Assembly: GCA_003223245.1 (NCBI GenBank)
Contig: QHYI01000129.1
Span: 62,001 to 126,000 of the forward strand
DNA from: Acidobacteriota bacterium
Lineage (GTDB): Bacteria > Acidobacteriota > Terriglobia > Acidiferrales > UBA7541
DNA length: 64,000 nucleotides
Direction: 5' to 3'
Below, piece by piece: positions 47,954 to 58,164 of the stretch. Position 1 is the stretch's first letter. Each line of letters begins with the position of its first letter. The position numbers and the translations under genes are program-made. The notes under the pieces are model-generated. The model had not been told where the DNA came from. It did no database searches and saw only the letters and a program-made list of their open reading frames with translations.

Positions 47954-48481
47954 CGGGCGTGCCTGCCGCTCCCGTACAGCGATCCCGAGCCTGCATCCGG
48001 ACATTCTGCATGCCCCGGGCGCACTGGATCGTTCGCCGATCGAAAAACGCCGAGCAGCGAATTACCACGCATTCGCAGCTCCGTTAGTGTTTGTAGATGA
48101 ACTGAGGTGGAGCGCCCTCTGGCTCTGGCAGCATTCCATACACGCCGACCGTGTCCGACGGAAAGCAGGAAAATCCGGTTTCTTTTTATACCTTGAACAC
48201 CTGGTATTGCCCCCTCCGGAATGGGGTGTTCACCTGCTATTTTTACGCTCCTATCCCCGCTCCTAATTATCGGGGAAGAACTGGATTGAGGGGCCAGGCT
48301 GCCTGGGTCTGGCGACGTCCTCTAGGACCGAAGGGGCCCATGCCGTCCGTCCGCAAGTCGTTGATGGGCAAAGGTTAATTGTGTTCTGGAGAACGAACAG
48401 GATTCCTTTAAAACCAAGTCTCGACGCAATCCCCCGCTTCCTGGTGGGACGCCGGACATTTGATGGGGAGGAGACCTCGTG
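47954..48481. other. Long 5' region of the subtilase gene with several hairpins
   Basis: About 528 nt with no gene. Local stems: TGAACACC (48194-48201) with GGTGTTCA (48225-48232); CCCCG (48255-48259) with CGGGG (48271-48275); GTCC/GGAC near 48317-48328; GCCCAT (48336-48341) with ATGGGC (48364-48369). These could form a structured leader. No known riboswitch consensus fits. Confidence 0.4.
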
Positions 48482-50659
48482 ATGAAACGCAGAATGGGGT
48501 GGGCAGGTGCACTCATCGCCCTTATGTGGGCCGCGCCGGCAAAGGCGGACACCGGAGTTATCGTGCGCACCTCGAATCTGCAGGCGCTTCAGGCGCTCTG
48601 CGCTCTACCCACCACCTGCACCGTGGTCGAGGGGCTCGACGGCACGCTGAGCCAAGTCTTCCTTGTGAGCACGCCCCTTCCCGTTCAGAGTTTGCTCGGG
48701 CTCCTCTCACCGTTGCCGGGATTCGTGGAAGCTGAGGTGGATCAGGTGATCAGCTTGGTTGGTCCGCTGCTGGTTCCCTCGCCAATTCCCGCCACGCTGC
48801 TGCAGGACAGGACGCTTGTGCCCTACCCGGCAAATTCAACAACGATGGTGTGGAACAGCTATGCGAATCAGGAGGCGGCGACGATCGTAGAGGTCCAGAA
48901 CGCGCAAAGCACCTTCAACGTGACCGGGACAGGAATTGTTGCGGACATTGACACGGGAGTGGATCTCACGCATCCGGCACTACAAGGTGTTCTTTTGCCG
49001 GGCTACGACTACACGCGAGGCCAGCCGAATGGTTCAGAATTAAGCGACGTCGCGCCTTGCCCTTTTAGTTCCTGCCCACCTCCCCCATGCAGCTCTGCCA
49101 CTTGCCCCGCACCGGCACAAGTGAATCAGTCCACTGCGGCGGTTTTGGATCAGTCGACGGCAGCTGTTCTTGACGGCAATCCGCAATATGCGGCATTCGG
49201 CCACGGGACGATGGTGATGGGCATCATCCACCTGGTGGCCCCCACAGCCAAACTGTTGCCCCTGAAGGCGTTCAAGTCGGATGGGACGGGCGCTCTCTCC
49301 GACATATTGCGCGCGATTTATGACGCGGTGCAGAAGTACAACGCCAACGTAATCAACATGAGCTTTGATTTCAAGACCGCCTCGACAGAATTGCAGAATG
49401 CGCTCAATTACGCGAGCGGGTTGGGCATCATTTGTGCGTCATCGGCGGGAAACGACGGGATGCAAGAGACGGTTTATCCCGCCGCGCTGCAAAGCGTCGT
49501 GGTGGGCGTCGCATCGGTGGGCTCAACAACTGCCACCGAAAGCACGCGATCCTCGTTCTCGAATTTTGGGAACGCGATCGTGTGGGTGGCGGCCCCGGGG
49601 GAAGCCATTGTGAGCACCTATCCCTACAACTCGTACGCGGCGGGATGGGGAACTTCGTTCAGCGCGCCATTTGTTTCGGGCGGAGGAGCCCTGCTGCGCG
49701 GACTAAAGACGACCATGAATCAGCCAGAGGCGGCCGCTGCGATAGCACATGCCGCACCGCTCTCCGACCCGGGCATGGGCAATGGGCGGTTCGATCTGGT
49801 TCCTGCACTCCAGTCTGTGTCCGGCGCGAGCGGTTCACCGGGCTACAGCGTTTCTGCGCTGCCGGCCACCCAGGCCATAGCAGCGGGAGGAACGGCAAAT
49901 TACACGGTGTCTGCTGCACCAGCGAACGGATTCAATCAAACGATAACCTGGAGCTGTACCGGCGCCCCAGCGGCAGCCACTTGCACGGTCACCCCGCCGA
50001 CGGTGACGTTAGACGGGTCGAGCACGGCGACTGCAACAGTTACATTAACGACGACGCCGCGGTCGGTGGCGCGGCCTCTGGTTTCTCCGCGTTCCGGGCC
50101 TCGAAACGATCTACCTGTAGCGCTGGCGGTGGGAATCGCGTGGCTGGCGATGGCCTTGGTATTTGGGACCCTCAACAACGCTTCGCGTCGCAAACGCAAT
50201 CTTGCTGTAGCAACCGCGGTGCTTGTTGTCGCACTCTACGGCCACGCTTGCGGCGGCTACGGCTCTGTGATGGGACCGGTGTCGCCAATGCTGTCTTCTG
50301 TGACGCTTAGCCCAAGCAGTGTAAACGGTGGCTCTTCCACGACCGGGACGGTAACTCTCAGCGGAGCGGCGCCGAGCGGCGGGGCTACAGTGAACCTCTC
50401 GAGCAACAGCGCGTCGGTGACCGTCCCGTCGAGCGTGGCTGTCACTGGCGGAGCCACAAGTGCGACGTTCCCAGTGAATACCAGCGCGGTGAGCGCTTCG
50501 ACTGCAGTCACGATCTCTGCTTCCTATGGCGGCGCCAGCATGACGGCTTCGCTCACGGTAAAACCCCTAGGAACTCCCGCCGGAATTTACACACTGACGA
50601 TTACAGGAACGTCCGGCAACCTCAGCGATTCCACGACGGTCGCAGTAACAGTGAATTAG
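48482..50659 (+). CDS. Secreted subtilisin-like serine protease (S8) with Ig-like tail
   Basis: 725 aa. The signal peptide MKRRMGWAGALIALMWAAPAKA precedes an inhibitor-like propeptide (about 25-100). Catalytic triad: D in VADIDTGVDLTHPAL, H in FGHGTMVMGI, S in GWGTSFSAPFVSGG. An inserted loop near residue 215 has a tandem duplication, QSTAAVLD repeated twice. After the protease domain come an Ig-like repeat (about 455-545), two hydrophobic helices (LPVALAVGIAWLAMALVFG and LAVATAVLVVALYG) and a second Ig-like repeat ending TPAGIYTLTITGTSG. So it is exported and probably anchored or surface-bound. GGAGGAG lies 8 nt before the ATG. A secreted nutritional protease is likely. Confidence 0.9.
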   Translation: MKRRMGWAGALIALMWAAPAKADTGVIVRTSNLQALQALCALPTTCTVVEGLDGTLSQVFLVSTPLPVQSLLGLLSPLPGFVEAEVDQVISLVGPLLVPSPIPATLLQDRTLVPYPANSTTMVWNSYANQEAATIVEVQNAQSTFNVTGTGIVADIDTGVDLTHPALQGVLLPGYDYTRGQPNGSELSDVAPCPFSSCPPPPCSSATCPAPAQVNQSTAAVLDQSTAAVLDGNPQYAAFGHGTMVMGIIHLVAPTAKLLPLKAFKSDGTGALSDILRAIYDAVQKYNANVINMSFDFKTASTELQNALNYASGLGIICASSAGNDGMQETVYPAALQSVVVGVASVGSTTATESTRSSFSNFGNAIVWVAAPGEAIVSTYPYNSYAAGWGTSFSAPFVSGGGALLRGLKTTMNQPEAAAAIAHAAPLSDPGMGNGRFDLVPALQSVSGASGSPGYSVSALPATQAIAAGGTANYTVSAAPANGFNQTITWSCTGAPAAATCTVTPPTVTLDGSSTATATVTLTTTPRSVARPLVSPRSGPRNDLPVALAVGIAWLAMALVFGTLNNASRRKRNLAVATAVLVVALYGHACGGYGSVMGPVSPMLSSVTLSPSSVNGGSSTTGTVTLSGAAPSGGATVNLSSNSASVTVPSSVAVTGGATSATFPVNTSAVSASTAVTISASYGGASMTASLTVKPLGTPAGIYTLTITGTSGNLSDSTTVAVTVN

Positions 50660-50974
50660 CAAGAGTCTCGGAGCCCGTTCGTTTCGAACGACGCAGGTAA
50701 ACTCACCGTTTGCACCAGTAAGGCAGTGTTACAATATTTGACGATTCTGTTTCCCCGGGACTACCCATTTGCATCTGGCGAGTTCCCAGCTCGAAATTCC
50801 GTATCCGTTTGCCCGCGACCGGATCTTTGCTCGGAATTCTTCTTCTTGGTTCATGACCTCCCGAGCCGACTTACAGCCGCCGCAAAAAATGGTTTCTTCG
50901 ATGAGCGCAAGAGATGGCAGAATCTTTAGAACTCATTCTGTTGGGGAACGGAAATTCAGCGGAAGGTCCAGTCT
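50660..50974. other. Intergenic region, no gene seen
   Basis: About 315 nt between the protease and the next plus-strand gene. AT content rises from here to 56.8 kb. No promoter stands out. Confidence 0.4.
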
Positions 50975-51805
50975 ATGTCCCAAACTCCCGGTGCTTTTTC
51001 ATTGGAAACATGGTGGGAAAAGCTTATTGAACGAACGCCTGTCAAATACATTTCGCTAGTCTTGGGCGCCATCGGGATATGGCTCGTTTGGGAATTTCCC
51101 CCCGGGTATTTCCGGTACTCCATCGGGGAGGCCGCCGTTATCGCGGCTCTCCTCATGCTTCTCGTAGATCCGTTCTTGAAAGCTAGGCTGCTAAAGGAGG
51201 CGGCCAGAGACATTTTTGAATATCTCCTAGGATTCGACCAGCAACCACAGTTAAAGGAGCGCCTCAAGAGACTGGTTTTTGATACGAAGCTGTTCCGCAA
51301 GAATTTCAACGGGCGGTATAAGCTCGTTCCCCAAGCCGATTTCATGCAGATTGAGATGGAGTTTGACTTCGAGCTGGTTAATCCCACCGAAGAAGCAATT
51401 GAGTTCCAGTACAAAATTGATTTCGAGCAGGCCGAGAACCCCCGTCTTGATTCTGTAACCCTTGTGTCTTCAGAAAAGAATTATGCATGGCGGCCCACGT
51501 TACAAACTAAGGAAGATGAACCTTGGGTTCTTCAAGGGTTCGCGGATCCTGTGGAGATTCAGCCTGCATCCAAGGGGATAAGCTACAGGTTCGACGGCAA
51601 ATGCGCAGTAAGTTACCCACTGTCTTTTTACTACGCTCAGCATTTCGGCTATCCGACGATAGGCGTGACCATCACAATTGAGTACCCGGAAACGCTGGAA
51701 GTTGATGCCGCTCCTACTCCGTCGCACGAAGGGAATGTTTGGCGATACGAAAGGCTATTCATGCCCGGAGATCACATCAGTATTCGTTGGAAGCAGACGA
51801 AGTAA
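50975..51805 (+). CDS. Hypothetical membrane-anchored protein
   Basis: 276 aa. Two close hydrophobic segments (YISLVLGAIGIWLVWEF and AAVIAALLMLLVDPFL, about 25-67) anchor a cytoplasmic domain of about 200 residues with alternating strands (FMQIEMEFDFELVNPTEEAIEFQYKIDFEQ, YPTIGVTITIEYPETLEVDAAP). Not recognised. GC content and codon use look lower than in the core genes to the left, consistent with transfer. No clear RBS at the ATG. Confidence 0.6.
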   Translation: MSQTPGAFSLETWWEKLIERTPVKYISLVLGAIGIWLVWEFPPGYFRYSIGEAAVIAALLMLLVDPFLKARLLKEAARDIFEYLLGFDQQPQLKERLKRLVFDTKLFRKNFNGRYKLVPQADFMQIEMEFDFELVNPTEEAIEFQYKIDFEQAENPRLDSVTLVSSEKNYAWRPTLQTKEDEPWVLQGFADPVEIQPASKGISYRFDGKCAVSYPLSFYYAQHFGYPTIGVTITIEYPETLEVDAAPTPSHEGNVWRYERLFMPGDHISIRWKQTK

Positions 51806-52023
51806 GTTTGCTCCTCGGACTGCGACGAGCGCAAGATTTTCTGTACAAAATTCCTTAATCAGACCTTCGGGAAATTCGCCGGTCAATCATATCGCCGTTT
51901 TCTCAACGCGCGGCCGCGCGCTCCAGAGCGCTACGCGATCCGTTTTCGCAAAAGAGCCGAGGGTCTGAAGCATGTCGAGAAAATTCCCCCACGGCATTCG
52001 AAAACAAATCAGGCCACCTTTCC

Positions 52024-52440
52024 TTAGTCGACGTACCCTGGGCGGCCTGGCTGGCGTGAGAGGAAGCCTATCCAATCGACCCGTCGACACAGAAGGAAAA
52101 TTCGACTGGCCCTGGCGAGCGCGCCGGGAAATTCGATGGCGAGCGAGATCAGAGCACCGAACAACCCGCCTAGTAGGGCCGATGCGACGTTCGGTAGCGT
52201 GAACCAGAGTGTGACTCTACCGATCGTTAGTGCGTGGAGGGACCCAGCCGTCAAGGCATGGCTGGTGGCCACTCCGGACCTAAGAAAACTTGGAGCTACG
52301 ATGCCGGCAAAGAACAAACTGAGCGTAACGCAGCCAGCGAGTTCCAAGACGGAAAGAGCCTTTTGTATCTTTCTATTGTCAGCGCCCATTGCCGGCTGAC
52401 CGACTGAGTGGCTTTGAATTTGCTCCGCGCTATAAGACAT
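52024..52440 (-). CDS. Hypothetical small membrane protein
   Basis: About 138 aa. Two predicted membrane helices, VLELAGCVTLSLFFAGIVAPSFL and LPNVASALLGGLFGALISLAIEF, and a basic C-terminus (SRIFLLCRRVDW). AAAGGGGCAGGT sits just upstream of the ATG at 52440, supporting this start over the longer frame at 52596. Not recognised. It lies just outside the tRNA-flanked segment. Confidence 0.45.
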   Translation of the reverse strand: MSYSAEQIQSHSVGQPAMGADNRKIQKALSVLELAGCVTLSLFFAGIVAPSFLRSGVATSHALTAGSLHALTIGRVTLWFTLPNVASALLGGLFGALISLAIEFPGALARASRIFLLCRRVDWIGFLSRQPGRPGYVD

Positions 52441-52932
52441 ACCTGCCCCTTTCCGGAATGCTGCTCTTGACGTTGGATTTTCCAAGCACCGAGATCCTGG
52501 GGAATTGCCCATTGATGTATGGCGCGTGGAGTTTGTCGGTTGCCGGAACTCTTGCTCAACCAACGCAGCTTGTTCTTGAGTTCGCTGGCTCATCACCTAG
52601 TTCCCGGTGCTCAAAGTGAAGGGCATAAAGACGCAGGCGCGATATTGCGATAAACACTGCAAGATCGCCTAGGCTGAATACCCTACAGCCTCGAAAATCA
52701 TGATCCGGTATTGAAAACAAAGTGGTTACTGACAGGACTTTCCTGAACTTTCGGGCCGCAGGCCCTGACCGACAGCAGGTTGAGATTTGGCAGCGATACC
52801 GGGATTGTCCGGCAGAATCTTCGAAAAAAGGGGGCAAAAACGACGGAAACCGTGCTGTTCCATCCACTTGGCGCGCAGAGACTTTCAATCGCTGATAGCT
52901 CCCTTTAGCGCTTGGCAAGCCGTGCCTTGCGA
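52441..52932. other. Intergenic region containing the distal att-like copy
   Basis: About 492 nt without a credible gene. It holds the 20-bp copy of the tRNA-Glu 3' end (52787-52806). The open frame covering 52556-52936 on the minus strand has no family resemblance and is left out. Confidence 0.4.
52787..52806 (-). repeat. att-like copy of the tRNA-Glu 3' end
   Basis: TTGGCAGCGATACCGGGATT is identical to 56817-56836, which is the 3' end of tRNA-Glu (its CCA, acceptor strand and T-stem). Bases on either side differ. Its position, 4.03 kb downstream of the tRNA 3' end and in the same orientation, is where an integrase-made attachment-site duplication would fall. Confidence 0.75.
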
Positions 52933-55900
52933 TCAAATGCTATGCCTGTCTATGACCCTAGACATCTCGGCGAACTGACAAAATGCATTAGCAAGCTGCA
53001 TCTGCCTGGGAGTCCGGCAGTCGGACTCGAACAGCAACGGGCTGCCTACCAAAATCACGGTCGACATAGCCCTGGAAGTTGCGACATTCAAGCGATTCAA
53101 GCTATACAGAAACTCCATGCCTCTTGGCGCGTCCTCTGGCGATGAAGTCGTCAGGGAATAGACCACCACTGGAGCTTCCTGCCCCTGGAATTTGTCAACT
53201 GTCCCAACCCGCATGTTAGGCAGCCTCGCCGACAAATCTGCCACTTGAGCGTTGTACGGTGCCACGATCAAGATATCTCCTGGTTTAAGGGGCCGCTTAT
53301 GGCCCTTTTCGTAAAACCATTTCACCTCCGGCTTGAGCAACCCCTCCACAATCCGCGCAACGGCCTCCACTTCCTCGGAGGAGGAATTGCGATTCCCCTG
53401 GTGCTTCACCCTGACAAACCACAATCCCGCTCCGTCCAGCCATGGATGTCCTTCCACAACCCTGCTACTCGTGATTGGGTGTGGACTCAGCTTATCCTCG
53501 TAAAAAACAGCGGAGGTAAATTTGCAAACCTCCGGATGCAACCTCCAGCTTTTGGGCAGCAAAAATCCCAGCTCCGGCGGTATGGTCTTCCGGCCGTCCA
53601 ACAGATGCTCTAACGCCGATTTCTCCGCCCCGTCGGGATGACTGCCCTTCAACGGACGTTCCAATTGCTGAGGGTCGCCAAGTAAGACCAGTTTTTTTGC
53701 AGCCTGGGAAAGAGCTAGAACGTCAGCCAAGGACATCTGGCCTGCCTCGTCTACAAAGAGGACATCGACTGCTTCGGAAGCTTCCGCCGCCGACCATAAC
53801 CATGCCGTGCCGCCGACGACATTGGCTTTGCCTGACCGTAATGCATCCAGTGCTTCATCATTATCCTTCCTGGCTACTGCAACACCGGCGCTCTGTTCGC
53901 CGTCGTTGTCCCGATGTAAACACCGCACTCCCTGAACACTCTTCTCTTGTGCCGCTTCAACCACGGACTCCAGCAGGTTGCGAATTACTTTGTGGCTTAG
54001 TGCCGTGACGCCGACTTTGTCCCCCCTTTTCAGCAGTTCGCATATCATCCTGGCACCGGTATACGTCTTTCCTGATCCGGGAGGGCCCTGTATGGCAAAA
54101 ACCGAGTCCTCGAGGGCCAGCGCGATCCGGCTCGCCGTGTTTTCAGGCGTCTCCGAAGCGCGCTGCTCCAGTTTCTCTCCATCCGGCAAACGTGGTGGCT
54201 TTCGCAACAACAAATCGCGGGCCGCGCGGTATCGGCCGGCCGCATCGATTCCGTTTGCCTCAATCCACTTGCCAATCCGATAGAGTGAATCCGCAAGTGG
54301 GCCCGTATTGAGTGGACGATCCCACATGAACACCGACGGCGGATGAAACTCAGCCGTCTTTTTTGTTTTCCTGATATCCACAGTTCCGCTGACCGGGTCT
54401 AGGTCTACTACTTCGCCCACCTTTTGATTGACGTCTCCGAAGTAGACATCCTTGCCAACCCGCACGTTGGTTTTTTGTGGATCAAAGACGTAGCGATCCG
54501 TTGGCACCTGCTTTCCAGGATCGATTCTTTTCACAAAGCGCAGATTGGTGAGCGCCACTCGCTCATCGAGTAGGTCTTCAACATCCATATTCGCGAGCCG
54601 ATATCCTTCCTGCCAGACACATTTATCCTCGCGGCGATGCCAGCTTAACAACTGTGCGAGTAACCATTGGCCCGATTGCTCGTTTGACCGCAACTTCGGG
54701 TCGGCTGGGATGCCGGCACAAAGGCGCTCCGTCAAAGCAGCTGTTCTGTCCAACTTTTCTTGTAACTTTGCCGATGGATCACCGGTTTTTTCTGGTGGCC
54801 TCGGTACAATGATTCCTGACTGCAACAGCTTCTCGCGTTCTGCTTCGAGCCAGTCCCGCAGCACCGCTGCCGAAAAGCAATCCTCGCTGTTGTATCCCTC
54901 CATCGTGGAGCGGATCTCGTCCGGCAGTTGCTCATTTCCCCAGCCCAACTCCAGCCTGTGCTCCACGTACCGCATCGCCGCCCGCGACTGATCAAGTGGA
55001 GTATTCCGAACAAAACTGCAAAAGGCCTCCAATTTTTTCAGAGAATATTCTTCCACGCTTGCTCGAAAGCCCTGCTTGAAGGCTTGGTGCAGATCTACCA
55101 GAGCGTCAGCCCGCAGCAACTTGTCGACTTGATCTTCGCGCGTCGCATGCATTCCCATGAGCCGCTTCAACGCTCCCGATTCATAGCCACCGAAATGATA
55201 GACATGCATCCGCGGATTCGCTTCCCATCGCTTCATGATTTCGTCGATCAACCATTCAAAACCCTGTTTCTCTTCCTCACGGTTTAAGGCCCAACGTTTT
55301 TCGTAACTCAGTTTGCCCCTAGCGTTCTTGAAAGCAAACCCAAACAGGTATTGCAGGCCGAATTCGCCTACGAACGGGTCACCTTCCAAATCCAAAAACA
55401 CATCTTCTAGCGAAGGCTCCGGCAATCTACAAAGACCCATTCCCTCCACCACTGGCAAGAGCGGCTCGTGTACCAATTTCTTCTCCGTGCGCCCCTGAAC
55501 CTGCACGCGTGCCTGCTCACGAACGTGCTCGATTGCCTCACGCGATCCGTGCTCAGGCCGCTGCTTCAGAGGTATGGGCAACACAGCGAGCTTCGCTACG
55601 GTAGGTGTATGCCATGCTTCCAACTGCTTTGTCTGTAGCCGCCGCATTCCAGCCACAAGCGAGAGATGGTCGTCTCCACGTCGCTGTACGTCACACTCGC
55701 GAAACCAACGGCATATGTCGCAATGGGGCACGGGCTCTGGATATGTGCCGCTGTCTGCGCTATTCCGCACGGCCCCCATTAGTCGGCGTTTCACGTAGCG
55801 GAAATACGCGGCGTACTCGGCCACACGGTACCCCTCACCCTCAAAATCATCTCCAGGGGGGATTACCCACATCCATTCCGGTCCTGAGCCCTGGACTTTT

Positions 55901-56370
55901 TCAAGCAGCTCCGAATATAGCGACAGCTGCAAAATTGTGGCCGCCTTTGTCTCCCGTGCCAGCTTCGTGTCTGCTACCTCGTACGACCAGTCCCATTTCC
56001 CACTGCGTTTTGCCATCCGCCGTAGCACATCGGGCCGGCCAAACCATTCACCGTCGGCCAAAGCTCCCTGCGCAATCACCTCCACAGCCTGCGCCATGCA
56101 CTTTTGTGTTTCTTCGAGAAGCTCCTTCTCGTCCTTTATTGTGGAGAGGTTCACCACAGTCAGCTTTTCATTTTGTGCTAAATGCCCGAGGTAGGCTTTT
56201 TCGTGCCGCTCACCGCGTTCGCGTATCACTACTAGGTCGGGTGCGGCCCAATCCGGCGCTGATCTCTCGCCACGCGCCACCTGCAAATCCAGGGTGGTTA
56301 CATGGCGGCACGCTAGATGATTACTTAGGTCGGTCGCTGCTAAGCGAATTCCAGAGAGCTGAACTTTCAT
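52933..56370 (-). CDS. TM0106-type RecB-like nuclease / RNase H-like exonuclease / SF1 helicase
   Basis: 1145 aa with three enzymatic parts. (1) Residues 1-230: Fe-S RecB/Cas4-like nuclease, with D114 in GRPDVL, D134-x-K136 in YEVADTKLA, the Q148-x3-Y152 motif and four cluster cysteines C21, C217, C220 and C226. (2) Residues 320-510: RNase H-like 3'-5' exonuclease, D327-x-E329 in VFLDLEGD, HFGGYESGAL, and YNSEDC near 493. (3) Residues 740-1130: SF1 (Upf1/Dna2-like) helicase, Walker A GPPGSGKT (762-769), DEAGQ (874-878), GDPQQL (899-904) and VATSRA near 1111. Members of this TM0106 group are standalone helicase-nucleases; related proteins occur in defence islands. ATG at 56370, weak RBS. It fills the segment between the tRNA-Glu repeats. 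Confidence 0.93.
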   Translation of the reverse strand: MKVQLSGIRLAATDLSNHLACRHVTTLDLQVARGERSAPDWAAPDLVVIRERGERHEKAYLGHLAQNEKLTVVNLSTIKDEKELLEETQKCMAQAVEVIAQGALADGEWFGRPDVLRRMAKRSGKWDWSYEVADTKLARETKAATILQLSLYSELLEKVQGSGPEWMWVIPPGDDFEGEGYRVAEYAAYFRYVKRRLMGAVRNSADSGTYPEPVPHCDICRWFRECDVQRRGDDHLSLVAGMRRLQTKQLEAWHTPTVAKLAVLPIPLKQRPEHGSREAIEHVREQARVQVQGRTEKKLVHEPLLPVVEGMGLCRLPEPSLEDVFLDLEGDPFVGEFGLQYLFGFAFKNARGKLSYEKRWALNREEEKQGFEWLIDEIMKRWEANPRMHVYHFGGYESGALKRLMGMHATREDQVDKLLRADALVDLHQAFKQGFRASVEEYSLKKLEAFCSFVRNTPLDQSRAAMRYVEHRLELGWGNEQLPDEIRSTMEGYNSEDCFSAAVLRDWLEAEREKLLQSGIIVPRPPEKTGDPSAKLQEKLDRTAALTERLCAGIPADPKLRSNEQSGQWLLAQLLSWHRREDKCVWQEGYRLANMDVEDLLDERVALTNLRFVKRIDPGKQVPTDRYVFDPQKTNVRVGKDVYFGDVNQKVGEVVDLDPVSGTVDIRKTKKTAEFHPPSVFMWDRPLNTGPLADSLYRIGKWIEANGIDAAGRYRAARDLLLRKPPRLPDGEKLEQRASETPENTASRIALALEDSVFAIQGPPGSGKTYTGARMICELLKRGDKVGVTALSHKVIRNLLESVVEAAQEKSVQGVRCLHRDNDGEQSAGVAVARKDNDEALDALRSGKANVVGGTAWLWSAAEASEAVDVLFVDEAGQMSLADVLALSQAAKKLVLLGDPQQLERPLKGSHPDGAEKSALEHLLDGRKTIPPELGFLLPKSWRLHPEVCKFTSAVFYEDKLSPHPITSSRVVEGHPWLDGAGLWFVRVKHQGNRNSSSEEVEAVARIVEGLLKPEVKWFYEKGHKRPLKPGDILIVAPYNAQVADLSARLPNMRVGTVDKFQGQEAPVVVYSLTTSSPEDAPRGMEFLYSLNRLNVATSRAMSTVILVGSPLLFESDCRTPRQMQLANAFCQFAEMSRVIDRHSI

Positions 56371-56464
56371 GATTGCAACGAATCTTGAGCACTCACCTTT
56401 TAGCCCGAAGTTCCGGGACCTGCCACAGAGTATTCTGCTGATTCCTGGAGGGATAGCAAAAAAT

Positions 56465-56767
56465 TCAACTTCCGGTTACTGGGAACGTCCGCAGTAACTC
56501 GTAGGCCCGGGCTTGCACCGGCGTCGGATCCGGCACTTGCCAGAATGTCACAGGAGTCTTGTCAGCGGTCTTCTGCTCCGTCTTCTCTTTGAACACGTAA
56601 GTCACTCGCGCCCGAGAGGCCAACGCGCCGAGCAAGTCCTCAAAACTGTACACGGGAAGATCATAGGCCGTTTCCTGGGAGAGCTTCTTGCGCTCCGCGG
56701 AAGCCGACGGTTGTGCCCCCCTGTTCAATACTCGCTTTCCGGGCAAAGTCTCGATGGTTTGGGACAA
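56465..56767 (-). pseudogene. C-terminal transposase fragment (IS1634-like)
   Basis: A 100-codon frame ending VPDPTPVQARAYELLRTFPVTGS. The pattern of a hydrophobic FEDLLGALASRARVTYVF strand-helix followed by P-x-P-x-Q-x-A-x-x-LL is the usual C-terminus of IS1634/IS4-like transposases. The frame starts with a TTG and has no catalytic residues, so it is a remnant. It lies between the tRNA-Glu gene and the helicase-nuclease gene. Confidence 0.6.
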
Positions 56768-56816
56768 GCTCAGAGGTAGGCTGTCAACTGTACTGAAATG
56801 GATCGGTTAGGGAGGG

Positions 56817-56836
56817 TTGGCAGCGATACCGGGATT
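56817..56836 (-). repeat. att-like proximal copy inside tRNA-Glu
   Basis: The same 20 bases as at 52787-52806, here forming the tRNA's T-stem/acceptor strand and CCA. The intact tRNA keeps its sequence, as expected for an integration that restores the gene. Confidence 0.75.
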
Positions 56837-56892
56837 CGAACCCGGATTTTAGCCTTGAGAGGGCTACGTCCTAACCCTTAGACGATATCGCC
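56818..56892 (-). tRNA. tRNA-Glu (anticodon CTC), CCA encoded
   Basis: Cloverleaf on the minus strand: acceptor GGCGATA (5', 56886-56892) with TATCGCT (one G-U pair), a D arm in GTCTAAGGGTTAGGAC, an anticodon stem TAGCC/GGCTA enclosing loop CTCTCAA with anticodon CTC (56857-56859), and a T arm CCGGG-TTCGAAT-CCCGG. G73 fits tRNA-Glu identity and CCA is encoded (56818-56820). Its 3' end is the integration-type site described at 52787-52806. Confidence 0.95.
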
Positions 56893-57069
56893 AGGGACCA
56901 AAAGAAGATACGGGGATCTGCCGGGCACAACCGAGCGCGCGAACTCATTTTCGCATGGTCGAGCGAGACGAGCAAGCAAAGGTTCGAATGGGATGTTGAA
57001 ATTGCGCGTTCGAAGTAGCCAAGAGCGTTAGCTTTGCACACCTAGCGGAGCCGCCGGGGTAGCGTTGTG

Positions 57070-57075
57070 TATAAT
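57070..57075 (+). promoter_or_regulatory. -10 element for the radical SAM gene
   Basis: Perfect TATAAT at 57070-57075, 28 nt before the ATG at 57103. No convincing -35. It argues against the upstream GTG at 57067 as the start. Confidence 0.5.
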
Positions 57076-57102
57076 GAACGGCTGGGGGGAATCCTAACTT
57101 TC

Positions 57103-58164
57103 ATGGCCAGGGGCTACGGAAAATCGCATGCTTCGCTGAAGGTGTGGTTTTGGCGCGCTGAGCGCTTCTTCCACACACGCAGGCGAGAAGTGCGCGCGAT
57201 CGCCAAGGCGCTGATTTCGACCAAGCATCCTTTCCTGGTTCATATTATCCCGATCCGCCGATGCAACCTGGCGTGCGCGTACTGCAACGAATTCGACGAT
57301 TTCTCGCCGCCGGTGCCGCTAGAAGAAATGAAGAAGCGGCTGGACATTCTGGCGGACATGGGGACGTCCATCATTACGATCAGCGGTGGTGAGCCGCTGC
57401 TGCATCCAGAGCTGGATGAAATTATCCGGCATATCCGGCGTCGCGGCATGATCGCGGGGATGATCACGAACGGATTCCTGCTGACACAAGAACGCATTGA
57501 GGAACTGAACGATGCCGGGCTGGAGCATTTGCAGATTAGTATCGACAACACAAAGCCCGACGAAGTTTCGAAGAAAAGCCTGAAGACGCTGGACCAGAAG
57601 CTCGAGCTGCTGGCGAATTACGCGTATTTTCAGGTGAACATTAATTCGGTGTTGGGGAGCGGAGTGAAAGATCCCGAGGATGCGCTGCGCATTGCGCACC
57701 GGGCCGTGGACTTGGGACTCACCAGCACGGTGGGAATCATTCACGACCACAACGGGCAATTGAAACCGCTGGGCCCGCGTGAAATCGAAATTTTCGAAGA
57801 GATCATGACGCTTAGCAAGCGGTCGTTCTCGCGATTCAACCATTTTCAGCACAACGTGGCGCGCGGGAAAGAGCACCCGTGGCGATGCCGGTCGGGCTCG
57901 CGGTATTTGTACGTTTGCGAGGACGGATTGGTGCATTGGTGCTCGCAGCAACGGGGATATCCGGGGATACCGCTCGCCCAGTACACGCCCGAAATGCGGC
58001 ATCGCGAGTTTTACACGGAAAAGTACTGCGCGCCGCTGTGCACGGTTTCCTGCGTGCAGCAGGTCGGCATGCTGGACAACTGGCGAGCGCCGCAGACACT
58101 GAAGCCCATGCCCGTGGCGCAGCCGGAACTGGTGCAAATTGAATCGGCAGGCAGCGACTCCTGA
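57103..58164 (+). CDS. Radical SAM protein with SPASM-like C-terminus
   Basis: About 353 aa. The radical SAM cluster motif CNLACAYC (C-x3-C-x2-C) lies in [17 protein letters not shown] near residue 60, with [12 protein letters not shown] after it. The C-terminal part has further cysteines ([24 protein letters not shown] and [13 protein letters not shown]), fitting auxiliary Fe-S clusters. The product class is unknown; related proteins modify peptides or hopanoid-like lipids. Start is the ATG at 57103 ([15 protein letters not shown]). The ABC-transporter operon begins 103 nt after its stop on the same strand. Confidence 0.9.

What the first reader, a model, noticed from the sequence alone, without database searches (positions are those of the whole stretch)
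52787..56892. Possible tRNA-Glu-integrated 4-kb island with no integrase
The 3' end of tRNA-Glu (56817-56836) is repeated exactly, 20 of 20 bases, at 52787-52806 in the same orientation and on the correct (3') side of the tRNA. Between them lie a helicase-nuclease gene and a transposase fragment, and base composition looks lower in GC than in the flanking core genes. This is the layout of an attL/attR-bounded island that kept its tRNA intact, but it carries no integrase, suggesting loss of the integrase or mobilisation in trans.
Basis: partly seen in the sequence, partly recalled or inferred. Interest (0 to 1): 0.8.

Follow-up and report, generated by a model that had tools for sequence, protein, structure and literature searches.

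The report
Decayed tRNA-Glu island without integrase
A 4-kb piece of DNA beside a tRNA gene still carries what look like the end marks of a once-mobile element, but no enzyme to move it; relics of this kind are well known, and this one is well preserved.

Summary
The 3' end of tRNA-Glu(CTC) is repeated exactly (20/20) at 52787-52806, same orientation, on its 3' side. The 6.3-Mb genome has two exact copies; 200 simulated windows reached 16 nt at most.

Best reading: a decayed integrative element (CIME-like; an Islander-type island without integrase). Strongest evidence: in G030 the same 20-mer continues into the same inner sequence (62 bp, 89%; first 36 bp identical) and similarity stops at the repeat's outer edge: a shared element end with different cargo.

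The cargo is an open TM0106-type nuclease-helicase gene that pairs with a distant genome's gene in a tree. A truncated transposase gene (56401-56717) lies near the tRNA, where an integrase could have been. Contig C20 has no Pfam integrase match.

Not confirmed: an empty site. In six relatives tRNA-Glu lies about 150-190 bp from glnA, but here glnA lies behind tRNA-Lys, and the left flank was not found linked to tRNA-Glu in 35 other genus genomes; the outer flank was probably rearranged. Low GC does not delimit the island. Mobilisation in trans is untested.

Side finding: in G018 and G011 this tRNA-Glu is split at the anticodon by elements whose integrase gene is followed by another complete tRNA-Glu.

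The parts
56818..56892 (-). tRNA-Glu (CTC), intact; the integration target
   Evidence: ARAGORN, Rfam RF00005; 100% identical full-length copies in G008 and G012
56817..56836 (+). tRNA-side copy of the 20-bp repeat (attL-like), within the tRNA 3' end
52787..52806 (+). distal copy of the 20-bp repeat (attR-like)
   Evidence: exact 20/20; one of two exact copies in the 6.3-Mb genome
52807..52848 (+). inner element end next to the distal repeat; with the repeat it forms a 62-bp stretch shared with G030:C338 at 89% (first 36 bp identical)
52933..56370 (-). cargo gene, 1145 aa: RecB/Cas4-like nuclease domain (TIGR03491), RNase_H_2 domain, SF1-type helicase domains (AAA_11/AAA_12)
   Evidence: its place in a tree conflicts with the close-relative group
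56401..56717 (-). truncated 3' end of a DDE transposase gene (IS remnant), 96% identical DNA to a longer copy at G000:C120
   Evidence: PF01609 in the longer copy; the fragment's own 100-aa ORF has no family match
56718..56816 (.). 99 bp between IS remnant and tRNA; would be the surviving tRNA-side arm of the element; no relative among the loci held at that time
52685..52775 (+). interspersed repeat of about 85-95 bp, copies in G000:C232 and in G018, G024, G030, G032; lies between the left flank and the distal repeat
48113..52688 (+). left flank, colinear in several pieces with G030:C86 (76-91% identical DNA) up to 52688; not linked to tRNA-Glu there
57067..58164 (+). radical SAM gene on the tRNA's 5' side, near this tRNA-Glu in close relatives too

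Best explanation
The 4-kb stretch 52807-56816 is what is left of an element that integrated by site-specific recombination at the 3' end (T loop to discriminator base) of tRNA-Glu(CTC). Integration kept the tRNA whole and left a 20-bp copy of its 3' end on the far side (shown: the repeat and the shared inner end; inferred: that a tyrosine recombinase made it). The tRNA-proximal part, where such elements often carry their integrase, was lost; an IS insertion followed by deletion is the likely cause, because only a truncated IS (56401-56717) and 99 bp remain there (inferred). The surviving cargo is one open nuclease-helicase gene of a kind that moves between genomes. At some time the chromosome was rearranged just outside the distal repeat, so glnA, the neighbour in relatives, is no longer there. 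The islet cannot move by its own genes; if it still moves, a foreign integrase must act on its two end sites (not tested).
For: The 20/20 repeat is in the right place and orientation and has no other exact copy in the genome. The inner flank is shared with G030:C338, 62 bp at 89%, ending at the repeat's outer edge. The 24 bp 52783-52806 (repeat plus four outer bases) equal the tRNA-Glu 3' end plus its next bases in G024 and G018, as expected if the outer flank keeps pre-integration bases. The tRNA is an integration site in the genus: integrase genes (PF00589) in the split-tRNA elements of G018 and G011, and in G024 an integrase-like frame starting about 265 bp from the tRNA 3' end (phrog_1, E 2.8e-11; Pfam below cut-off). 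Six relatives have tRNA-Glu about 150-190 bp from glnA with no room for a helicase gene. The helicase is 64-65% identical to those of G030, G024 and G018, which are 82-84% identical to each other, while the neighbouring rSAM protein is 88-91% identical to those of the close relatives; a tree of 20 proteins pairs G000 with G021 (100/100).
Against: No empty site with the present left flank (0 of 35 other genus genomes). No integrase in the islet. In G030 the tRNA and the shared element end are on different contigs, so an island spanning them is unproven, and beyond its end lies an inositol-phosphatase-type gene, not glnA. The helicase wanders as a single gene across the genus, and the rejected clade (p-AU 1.1e-61) is broken by other close relatives too (G008, and G032/G012 against G030/G024/G018), so its odd tree place does not show that it came with this element. 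The four extra matching outer bases are weak evidence; G032 shares two of them and G012 one.
Confidence: 0.82

Rival explanations
1. The distal 20-mer is the scar of a partial tRNA-Glu duplication or other recombination, not an attachment site; the helicase came in separately.
For: Only 20 bp are shared and no integrase is present; the helicase wanders as a single gene among relatives.
Against: The copy ends in the T loop, a usual crossover region (Islander, passages), and its other side is a sequence shared with G030, not tRNA sequence.
Confidence: 0.06
2. The islet belongs to a family of short, integrase-less elements with conserved ends that are moved in trans by a resident integrase.
For: G000 and G030 share the end but not the cargo. 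In the G030 stretches beside the tRNA (3.5 kb) and beside the end (4.7 kb) none of the six frames scanned with Pfam is an integrase. G000 has 26 PF00589 matches elsewhere, 23 over Pfam's cut-off.
Against: Only two copies of the end were found in 36 genomes. G030 has an assembly gap that may hold an integrase, and not every short frame there was scanned. No G000 integrase resembled the G024 one beyond 27% over 148 aa.
Confidence: 0.08
3. The shared 62 bp are a fragment of a protein gene that happens to match the tRNA 3' end. In G006 a permease-like frame matches 41 bp of it at 80%, and the peptide FGSDTGIV resembles a motif of such permeases (motif recalled).
For: G006:C119 match, inside a 767-aa frame.
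Against: The frames over the stretch are short (48 aa in G030; at most 127 aa in the window). blastx of both stretches against the G030 permease and against 3963 frames of held loci gave no shared protein match; its one hit under E 0.01 is the interspersed repeat. Pfam found nothing in the window peptide and only a sub-cut-off match (E 0.037) to an unlikely family in the G030 one. The similarity ends at the tRNA-derived edge, and an exact copy 4 kb from the tRNA in the right orientation would be a large coincidence.
Confidence: 0.03
4. Chance match.
For: 2-mismatch copies do arise by chance in coding DNA (4 of 36 genomes).
Against: Simulated maximum 16 in 200 windows; only two exact copies in the genome; shared inner flank.
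Confidence: 0.01

Closest known systems
CIME (cis-mobilizable element), a decayed ICE/IME that keeps only its att sites
   Same: Two att-like repeats and cargo, no recombination or transfer gene found; at a tRNA 3' end. Published classical CIMEs are 1.2-13 kb (PMC7563491, passages); definition in PMC5704250 (passage).
   Different: No sign that the ancestor was an ICE or IME (no relaxase or conjugation gene found); it could as well have been a phage satellite or another island.
Islander-type genomic island in a tRNA gene (PMC4383910, passages)
   Same: tRNA gene plus its 3' fragment downstream in the same orientation, longer than 2 kb, site in the T-stem/T-loop region.
   Different: Fails the integrase filter, so Islander would discard it.
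Flexible island bounded by repeats of the last 20 bp of tRNA-Lys in Methylopumilus (PMC10872708, passages)
   Same: 20-bp repeats of a tRNA 3' end mark the island.
   Different: Much larger and still variable among strains.
TM0106 family RecB-like nuclease-helicase (TIGR03491)
   Same: The cargo scores 224.6 bits against a cut-off of 97.45; relatives in genomes of several phyla (record titles) and on plasmids.
   Different: Nothing unusual seen. A search for 'TM0106' with 'nuclease' found no paper in the library.

Membership tests
CIME / decayed tRNA-integrated element | Two flanking att-like repeats, one inside the tRNA | tested here: met
CIME / decayed tRNA-integrated element | No integrase, relaxase or transfer gene inside | tested here: met
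   no PF00589 match on contig C20; of the ORFs in the islet only the helicase has family matches, and the other annotated piece is an IS remnant. Frames antisense to the helicase were not scanned.
CIME / decayed tRNA-integrated element | Derives from an ICE or IME | not testable with these tools
   no ICE/IME gene survives; no intact relative of the element found
CIME / decayed tRNA-integrated element | Can be mobilised by an element integrating at its att site | not testable with these tools
   needs an experiment
Islander-type island | 3' fragment lies 3' of the tRNA in the same orientation | tested here: met
Islander-type island | Integrase gene within the interval | tested here: not met
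   no PF00589 match on contig C20
Islander-type island | Empty site in a relative | tested here: inconclusive
   tRNA-Glu next to glnA in 6 relatives, but the window's left flank was not found linked to tRNA-Glu in 35 other genus genomes
TM0106 / TIGR03491 nuclease family | Score above the NCBIfam cut-off over the domain | tested here: met
   224.6 bits vs 97.45, profile positions 2-462 of 462

The most novel reading that the evidence does not exclude
G000 and G030 carry members of a small family of integrase-less cassettes with a conserved 62-bp end that use tRNA-Glu(CTC) and exchange cargo, moved in trans by integrases encoded elsewhere in the cell.
Probability: 0.1. Interest if true: 0.55.

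Novelty: new member of a known kind. Interest (0 to 1): 0.3.

Why it matters
It adds to the evidence that tRNA-Glu(CTC) is an integration hotspot in this genus (probably Acidobacteriota: the closest named helicase relatives are Acidobacteria MAGs at 61%), and gives a clear case of an island that lost its integrase while its cargo gene stayed open. The same tRNA in relatives hosts elements with a replacement tRNA, which may deserve a study of their own.

Tried and rejected
Low GC as a boundary marker: rejected, the left flank is lower still. glnA beyond the distal repeat: not there; it is at G000:C80 behind tRNA-Lys. A swap of glnA with the window's left flank at tRNA-Lys: the nine relatives' tRNA-Lys regions fetched (L110-L118) gave no match to a window protein at the thresholds used. 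A distal tRNA copy in G024, G032, G012 or G008: only the tRNA itself, genus-wide with up to 2 mismatches. A shared tRNA-side arm: 56718-56816 matched nothing else among the loci held. The element end in viral contigs: a 23-bp pattern gave 0 hits. Helicase in viruses: 4 of 50,697 phage records, all partial, but 2 IMG/VR contigs carry near full-length relatives at 52-55% (not examined further). A G000 integrase like the G024 one: only 27% over 148 aa. A coding origin of the shared end: no support. ORF 52556-52936 spans the repeat and has no family match; not taken as a gene.

Limits. The glnA and tRNA searches covered 37 genomes, of which 22 are relatives of the same genus; five of the six tRNA-glnA neighbours are among these 22, the sixth (G032) comes from a fetched locus. 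In others, such as G004 and G009, tRNA-Glu and glnA are on different contigs. No tRNA-Glu copy was found in G003. The helicase tree used 20 of 22 extracted proteins (those over 1000 residues); the rSAM table lacked G021. My Walker B pattern gave no match, although LFVDEAG is present by eye.
Full report
Observation. The window contains one tRNA gene, tRNA-Glu(CTC) at 56818-56892 on the minus strand. The 20-mer TTGGCAGCGATACCGGGATT lies at its 3' end (56817-56836) and again at 52787-52806, in the same orientation and on the tRNA's 3' side. In the whole 6.3-Mb genome there are two exact copies and one with three mismatches, and none of the reversed control. Without the distal copy the longest match of the tRNA region in the window is 12 nt; 200 simulated windows reached at most 16. 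Across 36 genus genomes, exact copies outside a tRNA gene were seen only in G000, in G030 and as a displaced tRNA half in G018. Copies with two mismatches and no tRNA found in the stretch fetched around them occur in G022, G018, G033 and G004; they lie inside long open frames (380-1072 aa), so chance can make such near-copies in coding DNA. The exact repeat 4 kb from the tRNA is not of that kind.

What lies between. One long gene, 52933-56370 minus, encodes 1145 aa with a TM0106-type RecB-like nuclease domain (TIGR03491, 224.6 bits, cut-off 97.45), an RNase_H_2 domain and SF1-type helicase domains. A RecB-type nuclease motif and a Walker A motif were found by pattern (motif meaning recalled). 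Against the G021 gene there are far more synonymous than non-synonymous differences (pS 0.69, pN 0.135), so the gene has been under long-term purifying selection; this says nothing about the time since integration. Upstream of it, 56401-56717 is the 3' end of a transposase gene, 96% identical in DNA to a longer copy at G000:C120 that matches DDE_Tnp_1. It is cut off on the side facing the tRNA, leaving 99 bp (56718-56816) that matched nothing else among the loci held then. A genome-wide search with the Pfam integrase family gave 26 matches, none on contig C20.

The element end. A genus-wide search for the 20-mer found a second exact copy in G030, at C338. There the similarity to the window runs on past the T-loop side: 52787-52848 aligns over 62 bp at 89%, the first 36 bp identical, and stops at the outer edge of the repeat. 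The cargo beside it differs: a MacB/FtsX permease and a SnoaL protein. Shared end, different insides and different outsides is what an integrative element family leaves. I tested whether the 62 bp could be a piece of a protein gene, because a G006 permease frame matches 41 bp of it at 80%: the frames over it are short, and searches against the held frames and Pfam gave no support. In G030 the tRNA is on another contig (C3), followed by a BlaI-type repressor and an M56 peptidase, so the two ends are not linked by assembly; outside the G030 end lies an inositol-phosphatase-type gene, not glnA.

The site in relatives. In G008, G012, G013, G014 and G022 and in G032 tRNA-Glu lies about 150-190 bp from glnA. 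In the close relatives the radical SAM gene lies on the tRNA's 5' side, at distances from a few hundred bases to about 4.5 kb. In G024 about 3 kb lie between tRNA and glnA, with an integrase-like frame (phrog_1, E 2.8e-11; Pfam integrase only below cut-off and over part of the profile). In G018 and G011 the tRNA is split at the anticodon (see below). Where both genes were located, the helicase was never on the contig that holds tRNA-Glu; the assemblies are fragmented, and no tRNA-Glu copy was found in G003.

The missing empty site. The window's left flank was found in G030 (C86, C96) and in smaller pieces in G018 and G017, not beside tRNA-Glu (35 other genus genomes). Similarity to both G030 copies ends at 52683-52688, where an interspersed repeat begins (52685-52775), 11 bp from the distal tRNA copy. 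In this genome glnA lies at C80 behind tRNA-Lys. The simplest reading is that the outer flank was rearranged. The 24 bp 52783-52806 equal the tRNA end plus following bases in G024 and G018, which fits retained pre-integration sequence, though four bases are weak evidence.

The cargo's history. The neighbouring rSAM protein is 88-91% identical between G000 and G032, G030, G024, G012, G008 and G018, and 75-77% to the six other genomes in the table; G021 was not in it but scored 79% on a partial match. The helicase of G000 is 64-65% identical to those of G030, G024 and G018, 72% to G032, 71% to G012, 60% to G008 and 76% to G021. A tree of 20 proteins pairs G000 with G021 (100/100) and the AU test rejects G000 and its six close relatives as one clade (p 1.1e-61); other close relatives break that clade as well. 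Among the eight relatives whose helicase surroundings were compared, only G030 shares neighbours with others (with G032 on one side, with G024 on the other; G012 and G008 contigs are short). Relatives covering at least 80% of the protein occur in 58 of 72,556 plasmid records, 4 partial ones in phage records, and 2 near full-length ones in IMG/VR contigs. The gene is prone to transfer; that it arrived with this element is likely, not proven.

Verdict. The layout, the repeat and the shared element end make a decayed integrative element the best reading (0.82). It matches the published idea of CIMEs (PMC5704250, PMC7563491; passages read) and the Islander signature except for the integrase (PMC4383910; passages read). 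One of those passages counts 215 CIMEs in 303 Streptococcus agalactiae genomes at a single tRNA-Lys, so interest is modest.

Side finding. In G018 the tRNA-Glu 5' part (positions 1-39) and 3' part (28-75) lie on different contigs, and in G011 (1-37 and 29-75) about 9.3 kb apart. In both, an integrase frame (PF00589; in G018 only a 239-aa C-terminal part is open) is followed within about 20 bp by a complete, different tRNA-Glu(CTC). ARAGORN also still calls a 70-nt tRNA over the displaced 3' half in G018, so that it is dead is not shown. This resembles tRNA-dependent lysogeny of mycobacteriophages, in which the prophage supplies a replacement for the tRNA that it breaks (PMC10865867; abstract and outline read). 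In G000, 10 of the 26 integrase loci have a tRNA gene in the stretch held; in five of them a complete tRNA (Leu, Thr, Asn, Arg, Met) follows the integrase gene or fragment on the same strand. Half-tRNA fragments were found near the Thr, Arg and Met genes, none near Leu and Asn.

Noticed in passing
G018: L068 9165-10643 and L108 2726-2773; G011: L121 10775-12099 and G011:C130:20132-20168: tRNA-Glu(CTC) is split at the anticodon loop by elements whose integrase frame is followed by a complete, different tRNA-Glu(CTC); resembles phage tRNA-dependent lysogeny (PMC10865867, abstract). G017 has a partial tRNA copy (positions 1-34) near a second tRNA-Glu.
   Followed up: partly
G000 loci L214, L215, L216, L217, L218 (wider: L360-L364): Integrase genes or fragments followed on the same strand by complete tRNA-Leu, Thr, Asn, Arg and Met genes; half-tRNA fragments of Thr (28-75), Arg (1-39) and Met (32-74) lie 0.4-8 kb away, none found for Leu and Asn.
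   Followed up: partly
G000:C80:57164-58970 (L104): glnA lies behind tRNA-Lys(CTT) here, whereas in six relatives it lies behind tRNA-Glu(CTC): a rearrangement with a break near tRNA 3' ends.
   Followed up: partly
window 52685-52775: Interspersed repeat of about 85-95 bp with a GC-rich hairpin-like stretch (GGGCCGCAGGCCC); copies in G000:C232 and in G018, G024, G030, G032.
   Followed up: partly
G000 contigs C12 and C166 (three each), C8 and C144 (two each): Runs of neighbouring tyrosine recombinase genes, reminiscent of recombinase-in-trio elements (name recalled).
   Followed up: no
window 50884-51836; G030:C86 and C96; G018:C20: A low-GC hypothetical protein gene (49.6% GC) that exists in two copies in G030.
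   Followed up: no
IMG/VR loci L329 and L330: Two contigs labelled viral carry near full-length relatives of the nuclease-helicase at 52-55%.
   Followed up: no
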